The translations under genes were made by a program, and so were the position numbers. A DNA stretch of 64,000 bases from assembly GCA_024643255.1 (NCBI GenBank), contig JAHENF010000097.1, positions 30,798-94,797 on the forward strand. The letters are read 5' to 3'. The stretch is from Ilumatobacteraceae bacterium. Lineage in GTDB: Bacteria > Actinomycetota > Acidimicrobiia > Acidimicrobiales > Ilumatobacteraceae. Position 1 is the first letter of the stretch, and every line of letters starts with the position of its first letter. Positions 42,051 to 51,413 of this stretch are shown piece after piece. The notes under the pieces were generated by a model that saw only the letters and a list, made by a program, of their open reading frames with translations, did no database searches and was not told the DNA's origin.

Positions 42051-42350
42051 GTGTCGATCCTTGCGTCCAGCCTGACCCTGGGAGCCGCGGACTACGAATG
42101 GCGAGACGATGCCATCTGCCGTGACACCGATCCAGAGTTGTTCTTCCCGGTGGGGACCACCGGGCATGCGCTGTACCAGATCGATCGAGCCAAGCAGGTG
42201 TGCACGGAGTGCCACGTTGCCAAGCAGTGCCTCGATTTCGCGCTCGACACAAACCAGGATTCCGGCATCTGGGGTGGGCTGACCGAGGAGGAGCGGCGCG
42301 TGATCCGCCGCCGCCGGGTCGCCGCAGCGCGCGCAGCGCGCGCGAGCTGA
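42051..42350 (+). CDS. WhiB-family iron-sulfur regulator (WhiB1-like)
   Basis: A 99-residue WhiB protein holding a 4Fe-4S cluster with four Cys residues (AICRDTD, VCTECHVAKQC) and the GIWGGLTEEERR turn that contacts the main sigma factor. The basic C-terminus (RRRRVAAARAARA) binds DNA. The GTG start follows a GAGGAG ribosome-binding site and the 217-bp upstream region is long enough for complex control. Convergent with a PdtaS-type kinase gene, as for whiB1 and pdtaS in mycobacteria, which supports WhiB1 orthology. Confidence 0.93.
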   Translation: MSILASSLTLGAADYEWRDDAICRDTDPELFFPVGTTGHALYQIDRAKQVCTECHVAKQCLDFALDTNQDSGIWGGLTEEERRVIRRRRVAAARAARAS

Positions 42351-42353
42351 CGC

Positions 42354-43865
42354 TCAGTCGTCGGTCGGCACGGTCAGCTCGATGATCGTGCCGTGCTGTC
42401 GGCTCGAACCGTCACCGATGCCGGACAACTCGAGTTCGATGGTGGTCGCGGGTCGGATCTCGATGGTGCCGTTGAGTTCCGTCGTCACGAGCGTCCTCAC
42501 GATCGAGAGCCCGAGGCCCTTGGCCTGATCGAGTTCGAACGACGGCTCGACACCGCGACCGTTGTCGACCACGCGCACCGTGAGGCGGCCGTCGAGATGG
42601 CTCAGCGCCACGTTGACCTCGCCCCCACCACTGCCTTCCGGGAACCCGTGATCGACGGCGTTCTGCAGCAGTTCGGTGAGCACCACCGAGAGCGGCGTGG
42701 CCGTGTTGGCGGGAATCCGGCCTCCGTCGCCGCCGACGGTGAAGCGCACCGGTCGATCGGGTGACTGCAGGCTCTCCTCGGCGAGACGCAACAGCGGCCG
42801 GACGATCTCGATGAAGGCGATGTCTTCACCGGGCTCACGCGACAGTGACTCGTGGACCAGCGCAATCGTACGGATTCGACGCACCGACTCCTGGACGGCC
42901 GCCTTCGCCTCCGGATTGGTGAGCCGGCGCGCCTGGAGGCGCAACAGCGACGAGATCGTCTGCAGGTTGTTCTTGACGCGGTGATGGATCTCGCGGATCG
43001 TTGCGTCCTTGCTCAGCAGCAGGCGGTCACGCTTGCGGAGTTCGGTCACGTCACGGACCAGGAGCAGGCCGCCGGCGATCTCCGATCCGGACTCGGTCGT
43101 GGTCACGAGCGGGACGCAGCGACACAGCAGCGTCACGTCGGCGCCCTGCTCGAATTCCTCGACGATCGGTTCGCGTCGCTCGAATGCCTGACGAACCGGC
43201 CCGTCGTGGAAGCCGAGTTCGGCGAGGCGCATGCCCACCGGGTTCGCCTGGATGCCGACGCGGTGCAGCGCTGAATTCGCGTTGGGTGAGACGTAGGTGA
43301 CCGTGCCGGTCGCATCGAGCGTCAGCACGCCGTCGCCGACGCGTGGAGCGGCGCTCGAGTCCGCGACGCGACCTGCGAACGGGAACGTGCCGACCTCGAT
43401 CATCTGCGCGAACTCCTCGAAGATGAACGAGTAGTTGCGTTCGAGTTCGCCGAGTGGACGCCCTGCTCTGACCTTCCACTCCTTGGACAACACTGCGATG
43501 ATCTCGCCGTCTCGTCGCACCGGCATCGCCAACATGCGGGCGTGGTTGACGTCGGCGCCACCGCTGTCGTTCTCGATGGCGCCTTCGACACGCTGGCCGG
43601 TCTCGGCCGCCCGTTCGATCAGCTCGGCCTCATCGCCGTTGGCCCACGATCCGATGTAGTCGGTGGCATAGATCGTCTGGTTGGTGGCCGGGCGGACCTG
43701 ATCGACGGTCAGCCACTTCCGGTCGTCGGATCGGACGTAGAGCAGCAGGTCGGCGAAGCACAGATCGGCGAGGAACGCCCACTCCGCCGTGAGGCGGTGG
43801 AGGTGATCGATGTCGTCACGGTCGAGCGTCGTGTGCTCGCGGGCCAGTTCGGCAAGAGAGGTCAT
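42354..43865 (-). CDS. Sensor histidine kinase, PdtaS type
   Basis: A 503-residue soluble kinase with an N-terminal GAF-like domain (about residues 10-160), a PAS domain (about 180-275), a HisKA_2 dimerisation domain with the phospho-acceptor region IREIHHRVKNNLQTISSLLRL (His 294/295) and a HATPase (ELLQNAVDHGF). No membrane segment is seen. Homologues such as PdtaS phosphorylate an ANTAR-domain regulator that binds RNA; no such partner lies nearby. The 3-bp gap to whiB matches the mycobacterial order. The ATG at 43865 is 8 nt after CAGAAT. Confidence 0.9.
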   Translation of the reverse strand: MTSLAELAREHTTLDRDDIDHLHRLTAEWAFLADLCFADLLLYVRSDDRKWLTVDQVRPATNQTIYATDYIGSWANGDEAELIERAAETGQRVEGAIENDSGGADVNHARMLAMPVRRDGEIIAVLSKEWKVRAGRPLGELERNYSFIFEEFAQMIEVGTFPFAGRVADSSAAPRVGDGVLTLDATGTVTYVSPNANSALHRVGIQANPVGMRLAELGFHDGPVRQAFERREPIVEEFEQGADVTLLCRCVPLVTTTESGSEIAGGLLLVRDVTELRKRDRLLLSKDATIREIHHRVKNNLQTISSLLRLQARRLTNPEAKAAVQESVRRIRTIALVHESLSREPGEDIAFIEIVRPLLRLAEESLQSPDRPVRFTVGGDGGRIPANTATPLSVVLTELLQNAVDHGFPEGSGGGEVNVALSHLDGRLTVRVVDNGRGVEPSFELDQAKGLGLSIVRTLVTTELNGTIEIRPATTIELELSGIGDGSSRQHGTIIELTVPTDD

Positions 43866-43884: not shown

Positions 43885-45048
43885 TCATCCGCCGTCGCGG
43901 AGGTGACCGGCGAGCGCACCGAGCCCGGCGAGGTCGTGGATGTCGCCCTCCAGCCACGGCACGACCAGCAGCGCAGGTGCGAGATCGGCGAGTTCCGAAC
44001 GGCGATCCGACTCCCTGGCAGCGACGAGTGCGACATCGTCGAACCTGGTGGCGATCTGCTCCAGGACCGCGCTGACCTGCTTGCGCGGAGCATCGAGGCG
44101 AGCGGCGACGCTGTCGGCCAGTTCGCCGTCGGCATGCTCGAGCAGCCCCGCGGCACTCTCGGCGGCCGCCGAGGTCGCGAGGGCGACGGGGAGCACCCGG
44201 TTCGCGACGATCGCGCCGAGCGACATCCCCCGCTCGATCAGGGAGCGAGCAAGGAATCGGGCCTCGTAGCTCGGTGCGGTCTCGAGCGTCGTCACGACGA
44301 CGAACGCCGTGCGGGGATCCCGCAGCAGTGCCTCGACCTCTTTCGCCCGGCGCACGAACCCTCCCTCCATCGCCTGGAACAACACGAAGAAGTCGGCGAT
44401 GTCCTGGAGGAATCGCGACCCGAGGACCCGATCGGCCACTTGGTAGAACGGCTTCGAGGCGACGGTGAAGAGTCGCGAGCGGTACGGAACGGTGAGCCAG
44501 CGCAGCAGGCGACTGCCGAAGAACTCGATCATGCGATTCGGCGCGTCGAGGATCGACAGCGCATTGCGTGACGGTGGCGTGTCGACGATGACGAGATCGA
44601 AATCACCGGTGGCGTGGAGATCGTGCAACTGTTCCATCGCCAGGTACTCGTGGCTGTGCACGAAGCGGCTCGTGATGTTCTCGTACAGCGGGTTGGCGAG
44701 CACGGCATCGCGCGTCGCGTCGTCGGGCGCGTGTCGTGTGATCAGCTCGTCCCAGCCCGCCTTGGTGTCGAGCATCGCGACCCACACCTCACCGCGGACC
44801 TTGACGCCGGCTGCGACGAACGCCTTCGGATCGATCCGGACCGGCGTGTTGCCGAACTCGTCGAGGCCGAGCGCCGTCGCGAGACGGCGTGCAGGATCGA
44901 CGGTGATCACCAGGATGCGGCCCTTGTGCCGTTGGGCGGCCGCGACGCCGAGTGCCGCGGCAATCGTGGTCTTGCCCACGCCGCCCGATCCGGCGACGAG
45001 GATCATCTCGCGACTCGCGAGCAGGTTGTCGAGCTCAGCCACGACCAT
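43885..45048 (-). CDS. ArsA/Get3-like ATPase, second subunit
   Basis: A 387-residue P-loop ATPase of the anion-transporter/Get3 family. Walker A is VAGSGGVGKTT, with Ser where the deviant Walker lysine usually stands. LVITVDPARRLATALG and VIVDTPPSRNAL are also typical. It overlaps the start of the first ArsA gene's stop by 14 bp, so the two are translated together and probably form a heteromer, as in mycobacterial Rv3679/Rv3680. Their role is linked to membrane protein or lipid homeostasis in mycobacteria; the role here is inferred. Confidence 0.9.
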   Translation of the reverse strand: MVVAELDNLLASREMILVAGSGGVGKTTIAAALGVAAAQRHKGRILVITVDPARRLATALGLDEFGNTPVRIDPKAFVAAGVKVRGEVWVAMLDTKAGWDELITRHAPDDATRDAVLANPLYENITSRFVHSHEYLAMEQLHDLHATGDFDLVIVDTPPSRNALSILDAPNRMIEFFGSRLLRWLTVPYRSRLFTVASKPFYQVADRVLGSRFLQDIADFFVLFQAMEGGFVRRAKEVEALLRDPRTAFVVVTTLETAPSYEARFLARSLIERGMSLGAIVANRVLPVALATSAAAESAAGLLEHADGELADSVAARLDAPRKQVSAVLEQIATRFDDVALVAARESDRRSELADLAPALLVVPWLEGDIHDLAGLGALAGHLRDGG

Positions 45049-45997
45049 CAACGCCTGACGGTGGTTCGGGGTCGAGTTCGTCGGTGAGTGCCTGCGCGAC
45101 GAGCGAGACGACGCGTGGACCGGACCCTCGAGAGAACAACTCGGGCACGGTGATGATCGGCAGCCCGTCGGCGACGTCACCGCTCGATTCGAGCCAATGG
45201 CGGAGTCGATCGAGATGCTCGGCGCCGGTGCTGCGGCGTGTCTCGGTCAGGCGGGCTGCGTCGACGACGGTTGCCACGGCAGGCCCCGCGACGTCGACCA
45301 GCAGTTCCATCGCGTCGTCGAGTCGGTCGACGACGGCCTGTTCGCGTCGGCTGAACATCGCCGGCAGGACACGATTGGCGATGACCGCGGACGCATGGGC
45401 ACCGGTCTCGTCACGAAGTCGACCGAGGAGATCGATGGTCTCGGTGACCGGCATCTCCTCGGGGGTCGTCACGACGGCCACCCCGGTGCGCATCGGATCG
45501 TCGAGGATGTCGAGCATCCACTGTGTCTGGTCGCGGACCAGGCCGACCTGGACGAGGTCGGCGATCACCTTCGGCGCGCCGATCTGGCTGACGATGTGCC
45601 CGCTGGCCTCCGCGTCGACGACGATGAGGTCGTAGTGGCGTTCGCGTACCTCGTAGCAGAGCTTGCCCACCCCGAGGATCTCCTTCACGCCGGGAGCGGC
45701 GTCGGCGACGAAGTCGAACGTGGACGCGAGCGGCCCGATTCGTCCCAACAAGGGGATGCGTACGAACAATCGGAGGTACTCGCGCAGCGAGTCCTCGGTG
45801 TTCATGGCCATCGCATGCAGTTGAGGCGCGACCTCGGTCGGTTCGAAGCCCAACTCGCCGACGTCGAAGGCGGTGGCGAGCGCTCCCTTCGCGTCCATCT
45901 CGCACACGAGAGTGCGGCGACCATGGCGCGCCGCAACCTCCGCGATCGCGGCCGCGACGGTGGTCTTGCCGACGCCTCCTTTGCCCGTGACCCACAA
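45035..45997 (-). CDS. ArsA/Get3-like ATPase, first subunit
   Basis: A 320-residue or longer P-loop ATPase with the canonical deviant Walker A (TGKGGVGKTT), LVCEMDAKGALATAF and the switch LIVVDAEASGH. The first track codon, TTG at 45997, leaves only three residues before the Walker motif. In frame upstream there are 14 more codons that look like part of the family (GRPGLLDLDLLW), and GGAGG lies 6 nt before a CTG at 46039. That CTG, three bases before the DUF3107 stop, may be the true start. It belongs to the DUF3107/ArsA/ArsA operon. Confidence 0.88.
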   Translation of the reverse strand: MWVTGKGGVGKTTVAAAIAEVAARHGRRTLVCEMDAKGALATAFDVGELGFEPTEVAPQLHAMAMNTEDSLREYLRLFVRIPLLGRIGPLASTFDFVADAAPGVKEILGVGKLCYEVRERHYDLIVVDAEASGHIVSQIGAPKVIADLVQVGLVRDQTQWMLDILDDPMRTGVAVVTTPEEMPVTETIDLLGRLRDETGAHASAVIANRVLPAMFSRREQAVVDRLDDAMELLVDVAGPAVATVVDAARLTETRRSTGAEHLDRLRHWLESSGDVADGLPIITVPELFSRGSGPRVVSLVAQALTDELDPEPPSGVDGRG

Positions 45998-46041
45998 CAG
46001 GTCGAGGTCGAGGAGCCCCGGCCGACCCGTCGGGCCCAGGT

Positions 46042-46275
46042 TCAGCCTCCGAAGCCGATCTTGCGATCTCCGTCGGCGGAGCCGAGTTCGATGTAGGCGA
46101 TCTTGGCCGATGGGATGGCGACGTCCTTGCCGCGCTTGTCGGTGATCCAGAGCACGTCGGTGGCTCCAGCGAGGGCGGCTTCGACGCGCGACTTCAGATC
46201 GTCACGGTCAGCGTCTTCGGCGAGTTCGATGTTGATCTCGCGGGGGGCCTGGGTCACTCCGATGCGTACGTCCAC
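46042..46275 (-). CDS. DUF3107 family protein
   Basis: A 77-residue actinobacterial protein (DUF3107), starting VDVRIGVTQAPREINIELAED and ending with KIAYIELGSADGDRKIGFGG. Its function is unknown. GTG starts at 46275 and 46284 are both possible; the first fits the family N-terminus (VRIGV). It is the first gene of the operon with the two ArsA-like ATPases. Confidence 0.9.
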   Translation of the reverse strand: MDVRIGVTQAPREINIELAEDADRDDLKSRVEAALAGATDVLWITDKRGKDVAIPSAKIAYIELGSADGDRKIGFGG

Positions 46276-46364: not shown

Positions 46365-46411
46365 TTGACACCTTCTCGCATCGCCCGTAATGTACAACCA
46401 TATGGTTGTAC
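46365..46411 (+). promoter_or_regulatory. Sigma-70 promoter with overlapping ArsR operator
   Basis: TTGACA (46365-46370), 17-bp spacer and TAATGT (46388-46393) make a near-perfect housekeeping promoter. A perfect 20-bp palindrome GTACAACCATATGGTTGTAC (46392-46411) begins in the -10 box and contains the ATG at 46402. Binding by the encoded ArsR protein would block its own promoter. Confidence 0.93.
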
Positions 46412-46749
46412 GTGACGCTCGAGAGCTCAGCGACGCCGACGTCGACCGGATCTTCCGGGCACTGGCCGACGCAACGCGACGCGACATCGTCCGGCGCACG
46501 CTCCTCGGCGAAGCCTCGGTCTCCGAGCTCGCGGGCGCCTACGACATGTCGTTCGCCGCCGTGCAGAAGCACGTCGGCGTCCTGGAGGGAGCCGGACTCG
46601 TGACAAAACACCCGAACGGCCGCGAGCGGATCGTCCGCGGCAACCCCGACACCATCCTGCGCGCCCAGGCGTTGCTCGACAGGTACGAGCAGATCTGGCG
46701 CTCACGTATCGACCGACTCGACGACCTCCTCGCCGGCACCGACGAGTAG
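46402..46749 (+). CDS. ArsR-family regulator of an SRPBCC partner
   Basis: A 115-residue winged-helix repressor (DRIFRALADATRRDIVRRTL, AGAYDMSFAAVQKHVGVLEGAGLV) of the group that accompanies AHSA1/SRPBCC proteins. No metal-binding Cys pair is seen. The track start at 46390 lies inside the -10 box, so the first base of transcription should fall near 46400-46402; the ATG at 46402 then gives a leaderless message. The SRPBCC gene starts 31 bp after its stop and is in the same operon. Confidence 0.92.
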   Translation: MVVRDARELSDADVDRIFRALADATRRDIVRRTLLGEASVSELAGAYDMSFAAVQKHVGVLEGAGLVTKHPNGRERIVRGNPDTILRAQALLDRYEQIWRSRIDRLDDLLAGTDE

Positions 46750-46780
46750 ACCCCGACGTACCAAGAAGAAGGACACCACC

Positions 46781-47764
46781 ATGCCCATCACCTCGGTCGA
46801 GAAGGATCTCGACGCCCTCACCATGACCGTCATCGCCGACTTCGACGCCACCCGCGAGCGATTGTGGGAGGCCTATAGCGACCCCCGCCAGATCGAGAGG
46901 TTCTGGGGACCCGTCGAGTGGCCCGCAACGTTCACGCGCCACGACGTGTTCGTCGGCGGACGGTCCGCCTACTTCATGACCGGACCAGAGGGCGAACACT
47001 CAGCGGGCTTCTGGGAGTTCCTCGCCGTCGACGAGGGCAAGTTCTTCGAGGTCCGCGACGGGTTCGCGGGCGCCGACGGTGAGGAGAACACCGCCATGCC
47101 GTCGATGCGGATGACCTTCTCCTTCGAGGACACGAGCAGCGGATCACGCCTGGTCACCATCACCCACTTCGGATCGCTCGAACAGCTCGAACAGCTGCTC
47201 GACATGGGCATGGAAGAGGGCATGACGTCTGCCATGGGCCAAATCGATCGGGTGCTCGCCGACCTCGAATCCTTCGCCGCCGGCCGTGGCACCGAACCAC
47301 AGATCCTCTCCGACACCCAGGTGCGCATCTCGCGCATCATCCGCGGCACCGTCGAGCAGGTGTGGCAGGCCCACCACGACCCCGCGCTGTTGCAGCAGTG
47401 GATGCTCGGCCCCGACGGATGGACCATGCCTGTCTGCGAGGTGGCGACCGAGGTGGGCGGGGTCTACCGCTACGAGTGGGAGCTCGAGAACGAATCAGTG
47501 GACGGCTCACCCCGACAGTTCGGATTCGAGGGCGAGTTGCTCGAGTCCGACCGACCGCACCGTGCGGTCACGACCGAACGCCCGATCGGATCAGCGGGTC
47601 TTGACACCACCAACGAGCTGACCCTCACGCCACACGATGGCAGCACCCTCCTGAACCTCGTCATCACCTTCCCCAACTCCGAGCTTCTCGACACCGTGCT
47701 CGACACCGGCATGGTCGGTGGGATGGAGAGCGGCTACGCCCGCCTCGACCGCATGCTCGCGTGA
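46781..47764 (+). CDS. Tandem SRPBCC (AHSA1-type) protein
   Basis: A 327-residue protein made of two START-like SRPBCC domains (about residues 10-165 and 175-325), each with the WEAYSDPRQIERFWGP or WQAHHDPALLQQWMLGP motif, so it arose by internal duplication. Such proteins bind hydrophobic ligands, and many are controlled by an ArsR partner, as here. The ATG follows AAGAAGGA. The ligand is unknown. Confidence 0.92.
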   Translation: MPITSVEKDLDALTMTVIADFDATRERLWEAYSDPRQIERFWGPVEWPATFTRHDVFVGGRSAYFMTGPEGEHSAGFWEFLAVDEGKFFEVRDGFAGADGEENTAMPSMRMTFSFEDTSSGSRLVTITHFGSLEQLEQLLDMGMEEGMTSAMGQIDRVLADLESFAAGRGTEPQILSDTQVRISRIIRGTVEQVWQAHHDPALLQQWMLGPDGWTMPVCEVATEVGGVYRYEWELENESVDGSPRQFGFEGELLESDRPHRAVTTERPIGSAGLDTTNELTLTPHDGSTLLNLVITFPNSELLDTVLDTGMVGGMESGYARLDRMLA

Positions 47765-50261: not shown

Positions 50262-51413
50262 ATGGCCGCCCCCGTGACCGAAGAACAGATCATCGACGCG
50301 CTCCGCCCCGTCGAGGATCCCGAACTGCACCGGTCGATCGTCGACCTCGGCATGCTGCGTGGCGTCACGATCCGCGACAACGGCGTCGTCGGCGTCCTGA
50401 TCGCGCTCACCGTGCCCGGCTGTCCGCTCAAGAGCGAGATCCAGCGTCGGGTGTCGGAGGCCGCCACGCAACTCGACGGCGTCGAGTCGATCGACCTCGA
50501 ATTCACCGTGATGAGCGACGACGACCGCGAGAACCTTCGCCGCACCCTCCACGGCGATGCCGGCGCGACCGCTGGAGCGAACCAGGCCCACGGTCATGCC
50601 GAAGGCCGTGAGATCCCGTTCTCGAAAAACAGCTCGAAGACGCGTCCGCTGCTGATCTCGTCCGGCAAGGGCGGCGTCGGCAAGTCCAGCGTCACCACCA
50701 ACCTCGCCGTCGCGCTCGCCTCGCAGGGCTACAAGGTAGGTGTCGTCGATGCCGACATCTACGGCTACTCCATTCCGCGCATGCTCGGTACCGACCGAGA
50801 TCCCGTGGTCATCGACGAGATGCTCGTACCGCCCGAGATGTGGGGCGTTCGCTGCATCTCGATCGGCTACTTCGTTCCCCAGGGCCAGGCTGTGATCTGG
50901 CGCGGCCCGATGCTCCACAAGGCGCTCGAACAGTTCCTGACCGACGTGTTCTGGGACGAGCCCGACTTCCTGCTGATCGACATGCCGCCCGGCACCGGCG
51001 ACATCGCGCTCTCGCTGGCGCAGTACCTGCCCCGCGGCGAAGTGTTCGTCGTGACCACCCCGCAGCCCGCGGCACAGAAGGTCGCGTCCCTCTCCGCGGC
51101 GATGGCGGCGAAGGTCAACCTGCCGGTGCGCGGTGTCATCGAGAACATGTCGTGGTTCACCGGCGACGACGGCAAGCGCTACGAAATCTTCGGATCCGGC
51201 GGCGGCCAGGTCCTCGCCGACGAACTCGACGTCCCACTGCTCGGCCGGCTTCCGCTCGTTCCCGCGCTGCGCGAGGGAGGCGACGACGGCAGGCCGATCA
51301 CCGCGGTCGACCCCGAGTCGGAGGCCGCCCAGATCTTCCAGCGCATCGCCGCTTCGATCGCCGTCGACATGAAGCCCAAGAAGGTCTTCTCCGACAAACT
51401 CAAGGTCCTCTGA
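50262..51413 (+). CDS. Mrp/ApbC-type Fe-S cluster carrier ATPase
   Basis: A 383-residue protein with an N-terminal MIP18/DUF59 domain (about 8-85; PVEDPELHRSIVDLGM) and a P-loop domain (GKGGVGKSSVTTN, about 134) that handles iron-sulfur clusters. The CxxC pair that usually follows NMSWF in Mrp/ApbC carriers is missing: here NMSWFTGDDGKRY. Cluster binding by that site is therefore doubtful. It is divergent from the SufR-like gene. Confidence 0.92.
   Translation: MAAPVTEEQIIDALRPVEDPELHRSIVDLGMLRGVTIRDNGVVGVLIALTVPGCPLKSEIQRRVSEAATQLDGVESIDLEFTVMSDDDRENLRRTLHGDAGATAGANQAHGHAEGREIPFSKNSSKTRPLLISSGKGGVGKSSVTTNLAVALASQGYKVGVVDADIYGYSIPRMLGTDRDPVVIDEMLVPPEMWGVRCISIGYFVPQGQAVIWRGPMLHKALEQFLTDVFWDEPDFLLIDMPPGTGDIALSLAQYLPRGEVFVVTTPQPAAQKVASLSAAMAAKVNLPVRGVIENMSWFTGDDGKRYEIFGSGGGQVLADELDVPLLGRLPLVPALREGGDDGRPITAVDPESEAAQIFQRIAASIAVDMKPKKVFSDKLKVL

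What the first reader, a model, noticed from the sequence alone, without database searches (positions are those of the whole stretch)
43885..46039. Asymmetric ArsA/Get3 pair, with a probable CTG start
The two coupled ATPases differ in Walker A: TGKGGVGKTT in one, AGSGGVGKTT in the other, which loses the signature lysine. The first one has 14 family-like codons upstream of the TTG, with GGAGG 6 nt before an in-frame CTG at 46039, three bases after the DUF3107 stop. A non-standard start would explain the truncated ORF call.
Basis: partly seen in the sequence, partly recalled or inferred. Interest (0 to 1): 0.5.

Follow-up and report, generated by a model that had tools for sequence, protein, structure and literature searches.

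The report
Asymmetric BagAB ATPase pair, CUG start
This is a bacterial cousin of the Get3 protein-targeting ATPases, made of two unequal subunits that probably share one working ATP site (one subunit lends a lysine to the other), and its first gene very probably starts at the rare codon CUG right after its upstream neighbour ends.

Summary
The genes are a BagA/BagB pair (homologues of Mycobacterium tuberculosis Rv3679/Rv3680, PDB 6BS3-6BS5) in an Ilumatobacteraceae MAG. The Walker asymmetry is not peculiar to this window: BagA keeps the signature Lys in 170/170 loci of the order and BagB never has it (0/164). The same split holds in two further pairs of this genome, across Actinomycetota and in other phyla. 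BagB always keeps Walker Lys and the catalytic Asp; BagA loses the Asp repeatedly and the Walker Lys at least twice (20/20 orthologues of a third pair read GKGGVGSST/STT). Best reading: one composite ATPase site, where BagB catalyses and BagA donates the signature lysine in trans (inferred, not assayed). The start: conserved residues lie upstream of the TTG, a sister species lacks the TTG, and 27/169 bagA genes have no ATG/GTG/TTG in range; 24 of these have an in-frame CTG at the DUF3107 stop (32/131 in other loci). DUF3107 starts are never CTG (0/158). CTG 46039, 6 nt after GGAGG, is the best start, though unproven. New: recurrent CTG initiation in one coupled gene, and a natural Walker-dead, signature-Lys-positive BagA class.

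The parts
46042..46275 (-). DUF3107 gene (GTG start), upstream coupled gene; its last Gly codons carry the GGAGG
   Evidence: PF11305, 1.6e-20; start codon ATG/GTG/TTG in 158/158 orthologues, CTG in none
46046..46050 (-). GGAGG, Shine-Dalgarno-like, 6 nt before CTG 46039
   Evidence: sequence; GGAG/GAGG/AGGA in the DUF3107 tail in 14/22 bagA loci without a standard start versus 6/46 with one, same family (loci are related, so the p-value overstates)
46037..46039 (-). CTG, proposed start codon of bagA
45995..45997 (-). TTG, mechanical ORF start, rejected as the real start
   Evidence: conserved L9, L10, L14 lie upstream; beta-1 is residues 14-19 and the TTG is residue 15; sister species G001 has CTG CTG there and no ATG/GTG/TTG until 29 codons past the P-loop
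45035..46039 (-). bagA (class A1), Get3/ArsA-fold ATPase subunit A, 334 aa from the CTG
   Evidence: PF02374; best PDB hit by sequence 6bs3_A; AlphaFold pLDDT 91, 6bs3_A rank 2 in Foldseek with the highest TM-score, 0.78
45959..45985 (-). BagA P-loop GKGGVGKTT, signature Lys at 45982-45980, Walker Lys at 45967-45965
   Evidence: signature Lys in 170/170 orthologues
43885..45048 (-). bagB (class B1), Get3/ArsA-fold ATPase subunit B, 387 aa, ATG start overlapping the bagA end by 14 nt
   Evidence: PF02374; best PDB hit 6bs3_B by sequence and by fold
44965..44991 (-). BagB P-loop GSGGVGKTT, signature Lys replaced by Ser (44988-44986)
   Evidence: S 122, P 33, A 7, T 1, G 1, K 0 in 164 orthologues
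44881..44904 (-). BagB switch I TVDPARRL with catalytic-type Asp51
   Evidence: Asp in 161/161 aligned orthologues, also in classes B2, B3 and in other phyla
42354..43865 (-). PdtaS-type histidine kinase, downstream neighbour
   Evidence: GAF_PdtaS PF12282 1.1e-34, HisKA_2
42051..42350 (+). WhiB transcription factor gene, convergent neighbour
   Evidence: PF02467 6.9e-25

Best explanation
The locus encodes a BagA/BagB heteromeric Get3-like ATPase made from a DUF3107-bagA-bagB operon. (1) Shown by sequence: BagA always keeps the signature lysine; BagB never has it but always keeps the Walker lysine and the switch I Asp. (2) Inferred from the known geometry of Get3/ArsA-type dimers, where the signature lysine reaches the nucleotide across the dimer interface: BagA completes the BagB site, so there is one composite hydrolytic site per A-B pair, and the BagA site is at most a structural or regulatory nucleotide site. 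ATP turnover would open and close the pair on a hydrophobic client; client and pathway are unknown. (3) Translation of bagA is coupled to DUF3107 and starts at CUG 46039, with the Shine-Dalgarno sequence inside the last DUF3107 codons; bagB is coupled to bagA by a 14-nt overlap. Initiation at a weak codon probably makes bagA translation depend on ribosomes that have just finished DUF3107 (inference).
For: Identity. Asymmetry rule: A signature K 170/170 (one, L151, with Walker GRST), B 0/164; own-genome pairs at C55 and C91 and the phylum sample show the same; in 37 further pairs, mostly from other phyla, B has K in 0/37 and Asp in 37/37, while A has a non-acidic residue at the approximate Asp position in most. 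Natural separation of function: class A3 has Walker Lys to Ser with signature Lys kept in 20/20; L151 has Walker Lys to Arg with signature Lys kept. Tree: A and B split at 100, mirrored sub-clades, so the division is ancestral. Start; controls: DUF3107 0/158 CTG, and bagB, where 12/164 lacked a start within 30 codons but 10 of them had one further upstream.
Against: No biochemistry, ribosome profiling or N-terminal peptide was available. The A-B dimer was not modelled and the 6BS3 coordinates could not be opened, so the trans placement of the lysine is taken from established knowledge of the family. The window's BagA still has Walker Lys, switch I Asp and switch II Asp, so its own site may be active. 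From memory, Whitaker et al. 2020 report that ATP-binding motifs of both subunits are needed in M. tuberculosis (paper not held). CUG is a very poor start: 0.024% of bacterial initiation codons and 0.86% of AUG output (PMC11497404), and not enriched in a mycobacterial reporter (PMC4633059). G002 of the same genus has an ATG 14 codons before the P-loop, so the start moves within the genus; ACG 46030 or CTG 46045 are not excluded here.
Confidence: 0.72

Rival explanations
1. Both sites hydrolyse ATP: BagB replaces the signature lysine with another basic residue of its own (for example the near-invariant Arg of the TVDPARRL motif), so the asymmetry has little functional meaning.
For: BagB Arg55 is invariant in the alignment; the window's BagA keeps Walker Lys and both Asp.
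Against: BagA loses the switch I Asp in most A2, phylum and other-phylum members and the Walker Lys in A3 and L151, while it keeps the signature Lys everywhere; two independently active sites do not predict that pattern.
Confidence: 0.2
2. bagA starts at the TTG 45997, giving a short N-terminus, as a default ORF caller would report.
For: It is the first ATG/GTG/TTG in frame.
Against: Conserved LLDLDLL lies upstream; beta-1 starts at residue 14 and the TTG is residue 15; no Shine-Dalgarno at a proper distance; in 20 of the 27 loci without a standard start the next ATG/GTG/TTG is inside or after the P-loop, including sister species G001.
Confidence: 0.06
3. bagA starts at another near-cognate codon at the same junction: CTG 46045 overlapping the DUF3107 stop (CTGA), or ACG 46030, by termination-reinitiation and not by the Shine-Dalgarno sequence.
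For: In g10 (L085, L091, L092) and L114 only the CTGA codon is available near the stop; L172 and L174 have ATC instead.
Against: In the window the GGAGG abuts CTG 46045 (0-nt spacer) but stands 6 nt before CTG 46039.
Confidence: 0.12
4. DUF3107 and bagA are made as one fusion by a ribosomal frameshift at the junction.
For: The bagA frame is open upstream of the CTG through much of DUF3107 in this genome.
Against: The reading-frame offset between the DUF3107 stop and bagA takes all three values among loci without a standard start.
Confidence: 0.02

Closest known systems
BagA/BagB of Mycobacterium tuberculosis (Rv3679/Rv3680; PDB 6BS3, 6BS4, 6BS5; Hu et al. 2019, Whitaker et al. 2020)
   Same: Tandem A-B genes, same fold, best PDB match for each subunit, signature Lys in A and not in B.
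   Different: The window pair is a separate paralogue clade (A1/B1); BagA about 27% and BagB about 35% identical in the structural alignments and far below the NCBIfam BagA/BagB cut-offs (145/400 and 270/521 bits); it sits behind DUF3107 and beside pdtaS and whiB. The same genome's C55 pair is nearer to M. tuberculosis BagB (365 bits).
Eukaryotic and archaeal Get3/TRC40
   Same: Fold, P-loop, switch motifs.
   Different: Get3 is a homodimer with the signature Lys and catalytic Asp in each subunit; here the two are shared out between two genes; no CxxC zinc motif in either subunit.
ArsA arsenite-pump ATPase
   Same: Pfam ArsA_ATPase family, paired P-loop domains.
   Different: Two separate genes; no arsB among the neighbours examined; BagB has no cysteine at all and BagA only two isolated ones, so the ArsA metalloid site is absent; far below the ArsA equivalog cut-off.
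Non-AUG bacterial starts (infC AUU, rare CUG starts)
   Same: Start at a near-cognate codon.
   Different: Here CUG recurs in one coupled gene in several genera; I know of no described case for bagA.

Membership tests
BagAB (Rv3679/Rv3680-type bacterial Get3-like heteromer) | Each subunit matches its own partner chain of 6BS3 best | tested here: met
   Sequence. Fold: BagB rank 1 = 6bs3_B; BagA 6bs3_A rank 2 by E-value, highest TM-score
BagAB (Rv3679/Rv3680-type bacterial Get3-like heteromer) | Tandem genes, A before B, each in its own clade | tested here: met
   Gene order; A/B split supported at 100 with mirrored sub-clades
BagAB (Rv3679/Rv3680-type bacterial Get3-like heteromer) | Passes the NCBIfam equivalog cut-off of M. 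tuberculosis BagA/BagB (only this defines an equivalog, not the wider homologous kind) | tested here: not met
   145 of 400 and 270 of 521 bits: a homologous paralogue clade, not an equivalog
BagAB (Rv3679/Rv3680-type bacterial Get3-like heteromer) | A and B form a physical complex with ATPase activity | not testable with these tools
   needs purified proteins
ArsA arsenite pump ATPase | Cysteine metalloid site and arsB partner | tested here: not met
   no suitable cysteines; no arsB among the neighbours examined
Get3/TRC40 tail-anchored protein targeting factor | Homodimer with CxxC; signature Lys and catalytic Asp in the same chain | tested here: not met
   no CxxC in either protein; BagB lacks the signature Lys
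Get3/TRC40 tail-anchored protein targeting factor | Binds tail-anchored clients | not testable with these tools
   needs pull-down or crosslinking

The most novel reading that the evidence does not exclude
BagAB-type pairs across several bacterial phyla are obligate single-site Get3-like ATPases in which subunit A has been reduced to a lysine donor; in Ilumatobacteraceae a third pair has gone all the way (A with no Walker lysine). In the same family bagA is translated from CUG (in two other loci perhaps AUC) only because it is coupled to DUF3107, which makes non-AUG initiation a recurrent, selected property of one gene.
Probability: 0.5. Interest if true: 0.65.

Novelty: new variant of a known kind. 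Interest (0 to 1): 0.52.

Why it matters
Where the ATP is hydrolysed in BagAB, and what each subunit is for, is not settled by anything I could read. The Walker-dead, signature-Lys-positive A subunits are nature's own separation-of-function mutants and turn that question into a simple assay. The recurrent CUG start gives a defined set of genes and sister species (with ATG, GTG, TTG or CTG at the same junction) on which translational coupling and non-AUG initiation can be tested, and it warns that standard gene callers cut this gene short.

Tried and rejected
(a) Programmed frameshift fusion DUF3107-BagA: rejected, the frame offset is not constant. (b) Six apparent BagB proteins with a signature Lys: artefacts, the locus ended before bagB and tblastn hit bagA. 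(c) Sequencing error as cause of the missing start: unlikely, 27 loci in 12 genera or families, including clusters of seven and five genomes. (d) A relaxed initiator tRNA as general cause of CTG starts: an A29-U41 variant anticodon stem was seen in three g10 genomes that lack a standard start, but users in g5, g6, g17 and g26 have the normal GGG/CCC stem, and no initiator tRNA was found in the window's own draft genome. (f) Hu 2019 and Whitaker 2020: not held; titles confirmed from a citing paper. (g) WhiB adjacency as a general rule: found in only part of the 1.5-kb flanks. (h) A-subunit counts are biased for the signature Lys, because the search seed included TGKGGVGK; only the B counts and the A Asp counts of that set are used.

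Full report
Observation. All stated features are present at the stated coordinates on the minus strand: DUF3107 stop at 46044-46042, GGAGG at 46050-46046, CTG at 46039, TTG at 45997 fourteen codons later, TGKGGVGKTT in the first ATPase and AGSGGVGKTT in the second. The second gene starts at ATG 45048 and overlaps the first by 14 nt.

Identity. Both proteins are ArsA_ATPase (PF02374). The best solved relatives by sequence are the two chains of M. tuberculosis Get3-like A and B, 6BS3: chain A for gene 1 and chain B for gene 2. AlphaFold models (pLDDT 91 and 92) match the same chains by fold. They fall far below the NCBIfam equivalog cut-offs for BagA and BagB, so they are a paralogue clade and not the equivalogs. 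The genome (a draft of 100 contigs, 92% complete, family Ilumatobacteraceae by its named relatives) has two further pairs, on contigs C55 and C91; the C55 BagB is nearer to M. tuberculosis BagB. In a tree of 156 proteins A and B separate at 100 support and their sub-clades mirror one another, so the pairs were duplicated as pairs and the A/B division is ancestral.

Asymmetry. In 170 loci of the order BagA always has the signature lysine, and BagB never has it in the 164 loci that include the gene. Classes A2/B2 and A3/B3 and 27 loci sampled across the phylum follow the same rule. Among 37 pairs from a named-genome scan, mostly from other phyla or classes (Myxococcota, Bdellovibrionota, Acidobacteriota, Solirubrobacterales and others), BagB has no signature lysine in 37/37 and the switch I Asp in 37/37. 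The A lysine counts of that scan are biased by the search seed and are not used. BagA behaves in the opposite way: the residue at the switch I Asp position is Asp in 164/169 of class A1, Glu in 26/30 of A2, mostly Glu in the phylum sample with some Ala and Ser, and mostly non-acidic in the 37 further pairs (the position is approximate where the loop length varies). The Walker lysine of BagA is Ser in 20/20 members of class A3 and Arg in L151, both with the signature lysine kept.

Mechanism. In Get3, ArsA and other deviant Walker A dimers the signature lysine acts across the interface on the partner's nucleotide (established knowledge, not tested here). Conservation of exactly that residue in a subunit whose own site is decaying, with conservation of everything else in the other subunit, is what one composite site predicts: BagB holds and hydrolyses ATP, BagA supplies the lysine. 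The window's own BagA still has a complete-looking site, so for this pair the claim is weaker than for A3. The client is unknown; in mycobacteria bagAB mutants have phenotypes in citrate tolerance and, by citation, in glycerol and nitric oxide tolerance (PMC10597346) and in survival under streptomycin (PMC12216072).

Start codon. The segment LLD(R/L)xLL(F/W)VTGKGG is conserved through the order; L9, L10 and L14, counted from the CTG, are invariant or nearly so and lie upstream of the TTG. Beta strand 1 is residues 14-19 and the TTG is residue 15. Sister species G001 has no TTG there. Orthologues start at GTG, ATG or TTG, most often 12 to 14 codons before the P-loop. In 27 of 169 loci none of these codons is present from 9 to 30 codons before the P-loop; in 20 of the 27 the next one is inside or after the P-loop. 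Of the 27, 24 have an in-frame CTG within -4 to +20 nt of the DUF3107 stop, against 32 of 131 loci with a standard start; a Shine-Dalgarno core in the last codons of DUF3107 is present in 14/22 against 6/46 within the family. These loci are related, so the p-values overstate, but the state changes at least ten times on well-supported branches of the gene tree. Two further loci (L172, L174) have ATC right after the DUF3107 stop. Controls in the same genomes: DUF3107 starts are never CTG (0/158); of 164 bagB genes 12 lacked a start within 30 codons, 10 of which have one further upstream, leaving two unclear. Against this stands the general weakness of CUG: 0.024% of bacterial starts and under 1% of AUG output (PMC11497404), and no enrichment in a mycobacterial reporter (PMC4633059). 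Coupling to the DUF3107 stop with an embedded Shine-Dalgarno sequence is the likely compensation (inference). In the window CTG 46039 has the right 6-nt spacing; CTG 46045 abuts the GGAGG and is less likely.

Verdict. A correct and useful observation on a known kind of system. The asymmetry by itself is already present in the M. tuberculosis pair. New here, as far as I could check, are the rule across phyla, the natural Walker-dead donor class, and recurrent CUG initiation in one coupled gene. No experiment was available, and the two primary BagAB papers could not be read, so part of the asymmetry may already have been remarked on there.

Noticed in passing
L179-L198 (own genome C91:31943-34032): Third BagAB pair with P-loop GKGGVGSST/STT in subunit A (Walker Lys lost, signature Lys kept) in 20/20 orthologues, a few kb from a ribonucleotide reductase gene in the own genome.
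   Followed up: yes
L151 (G076): A class A1 BagA with GKGGVGRST: Walker Lys replaced by Arg, signature Lys kept, independent of class A3.
   Followed up: partly
L172 and L174 (family f27): bagA without ATG/GTG/TTG or a CTG at the junction; an in-frame ATC stands 1-2 nt after the DUF3107 stop.
   Followed up: partly
L279, L280, L281 (genus g10): Initiator tRNA (C1 x C72) with A29-U41 in place of the usual G29-C41 in the anticodon stem, in three genomes that also lack a standard bagA start.
   Followed up: partly
own genome G000: No initiator tRNA was found with the family sequence in the 92%-complete draft; probably an assembly gap.
   Followed up: no
genera g2, g3, g4, g6, g10, g14, g22, g25: Many small-genome (1.5-2.8 Mb) members of the family have no bagA1 or a diverged one, so the pair is dispensable in streamlined lineages.
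   Followed up: no
window 50262-51413 +: Mrp/NBP35-type Fe-S carrier ATPase (PF10609, PF01883), a deviant Walker ATPase not part of the operon.
   Followed up: no
L294 6907-8454: NfeD-like membrane protein gene upstream of, and divergent from, the C55 bagAB pair in the own genome.
   Followed up: no
window 46390-47764 +: Helix-turn-helix regulator (by eye) followed by an AHSA1/SRPBCC-domain protein, divergent from DUF3107-bagAB.
   Followed up: no
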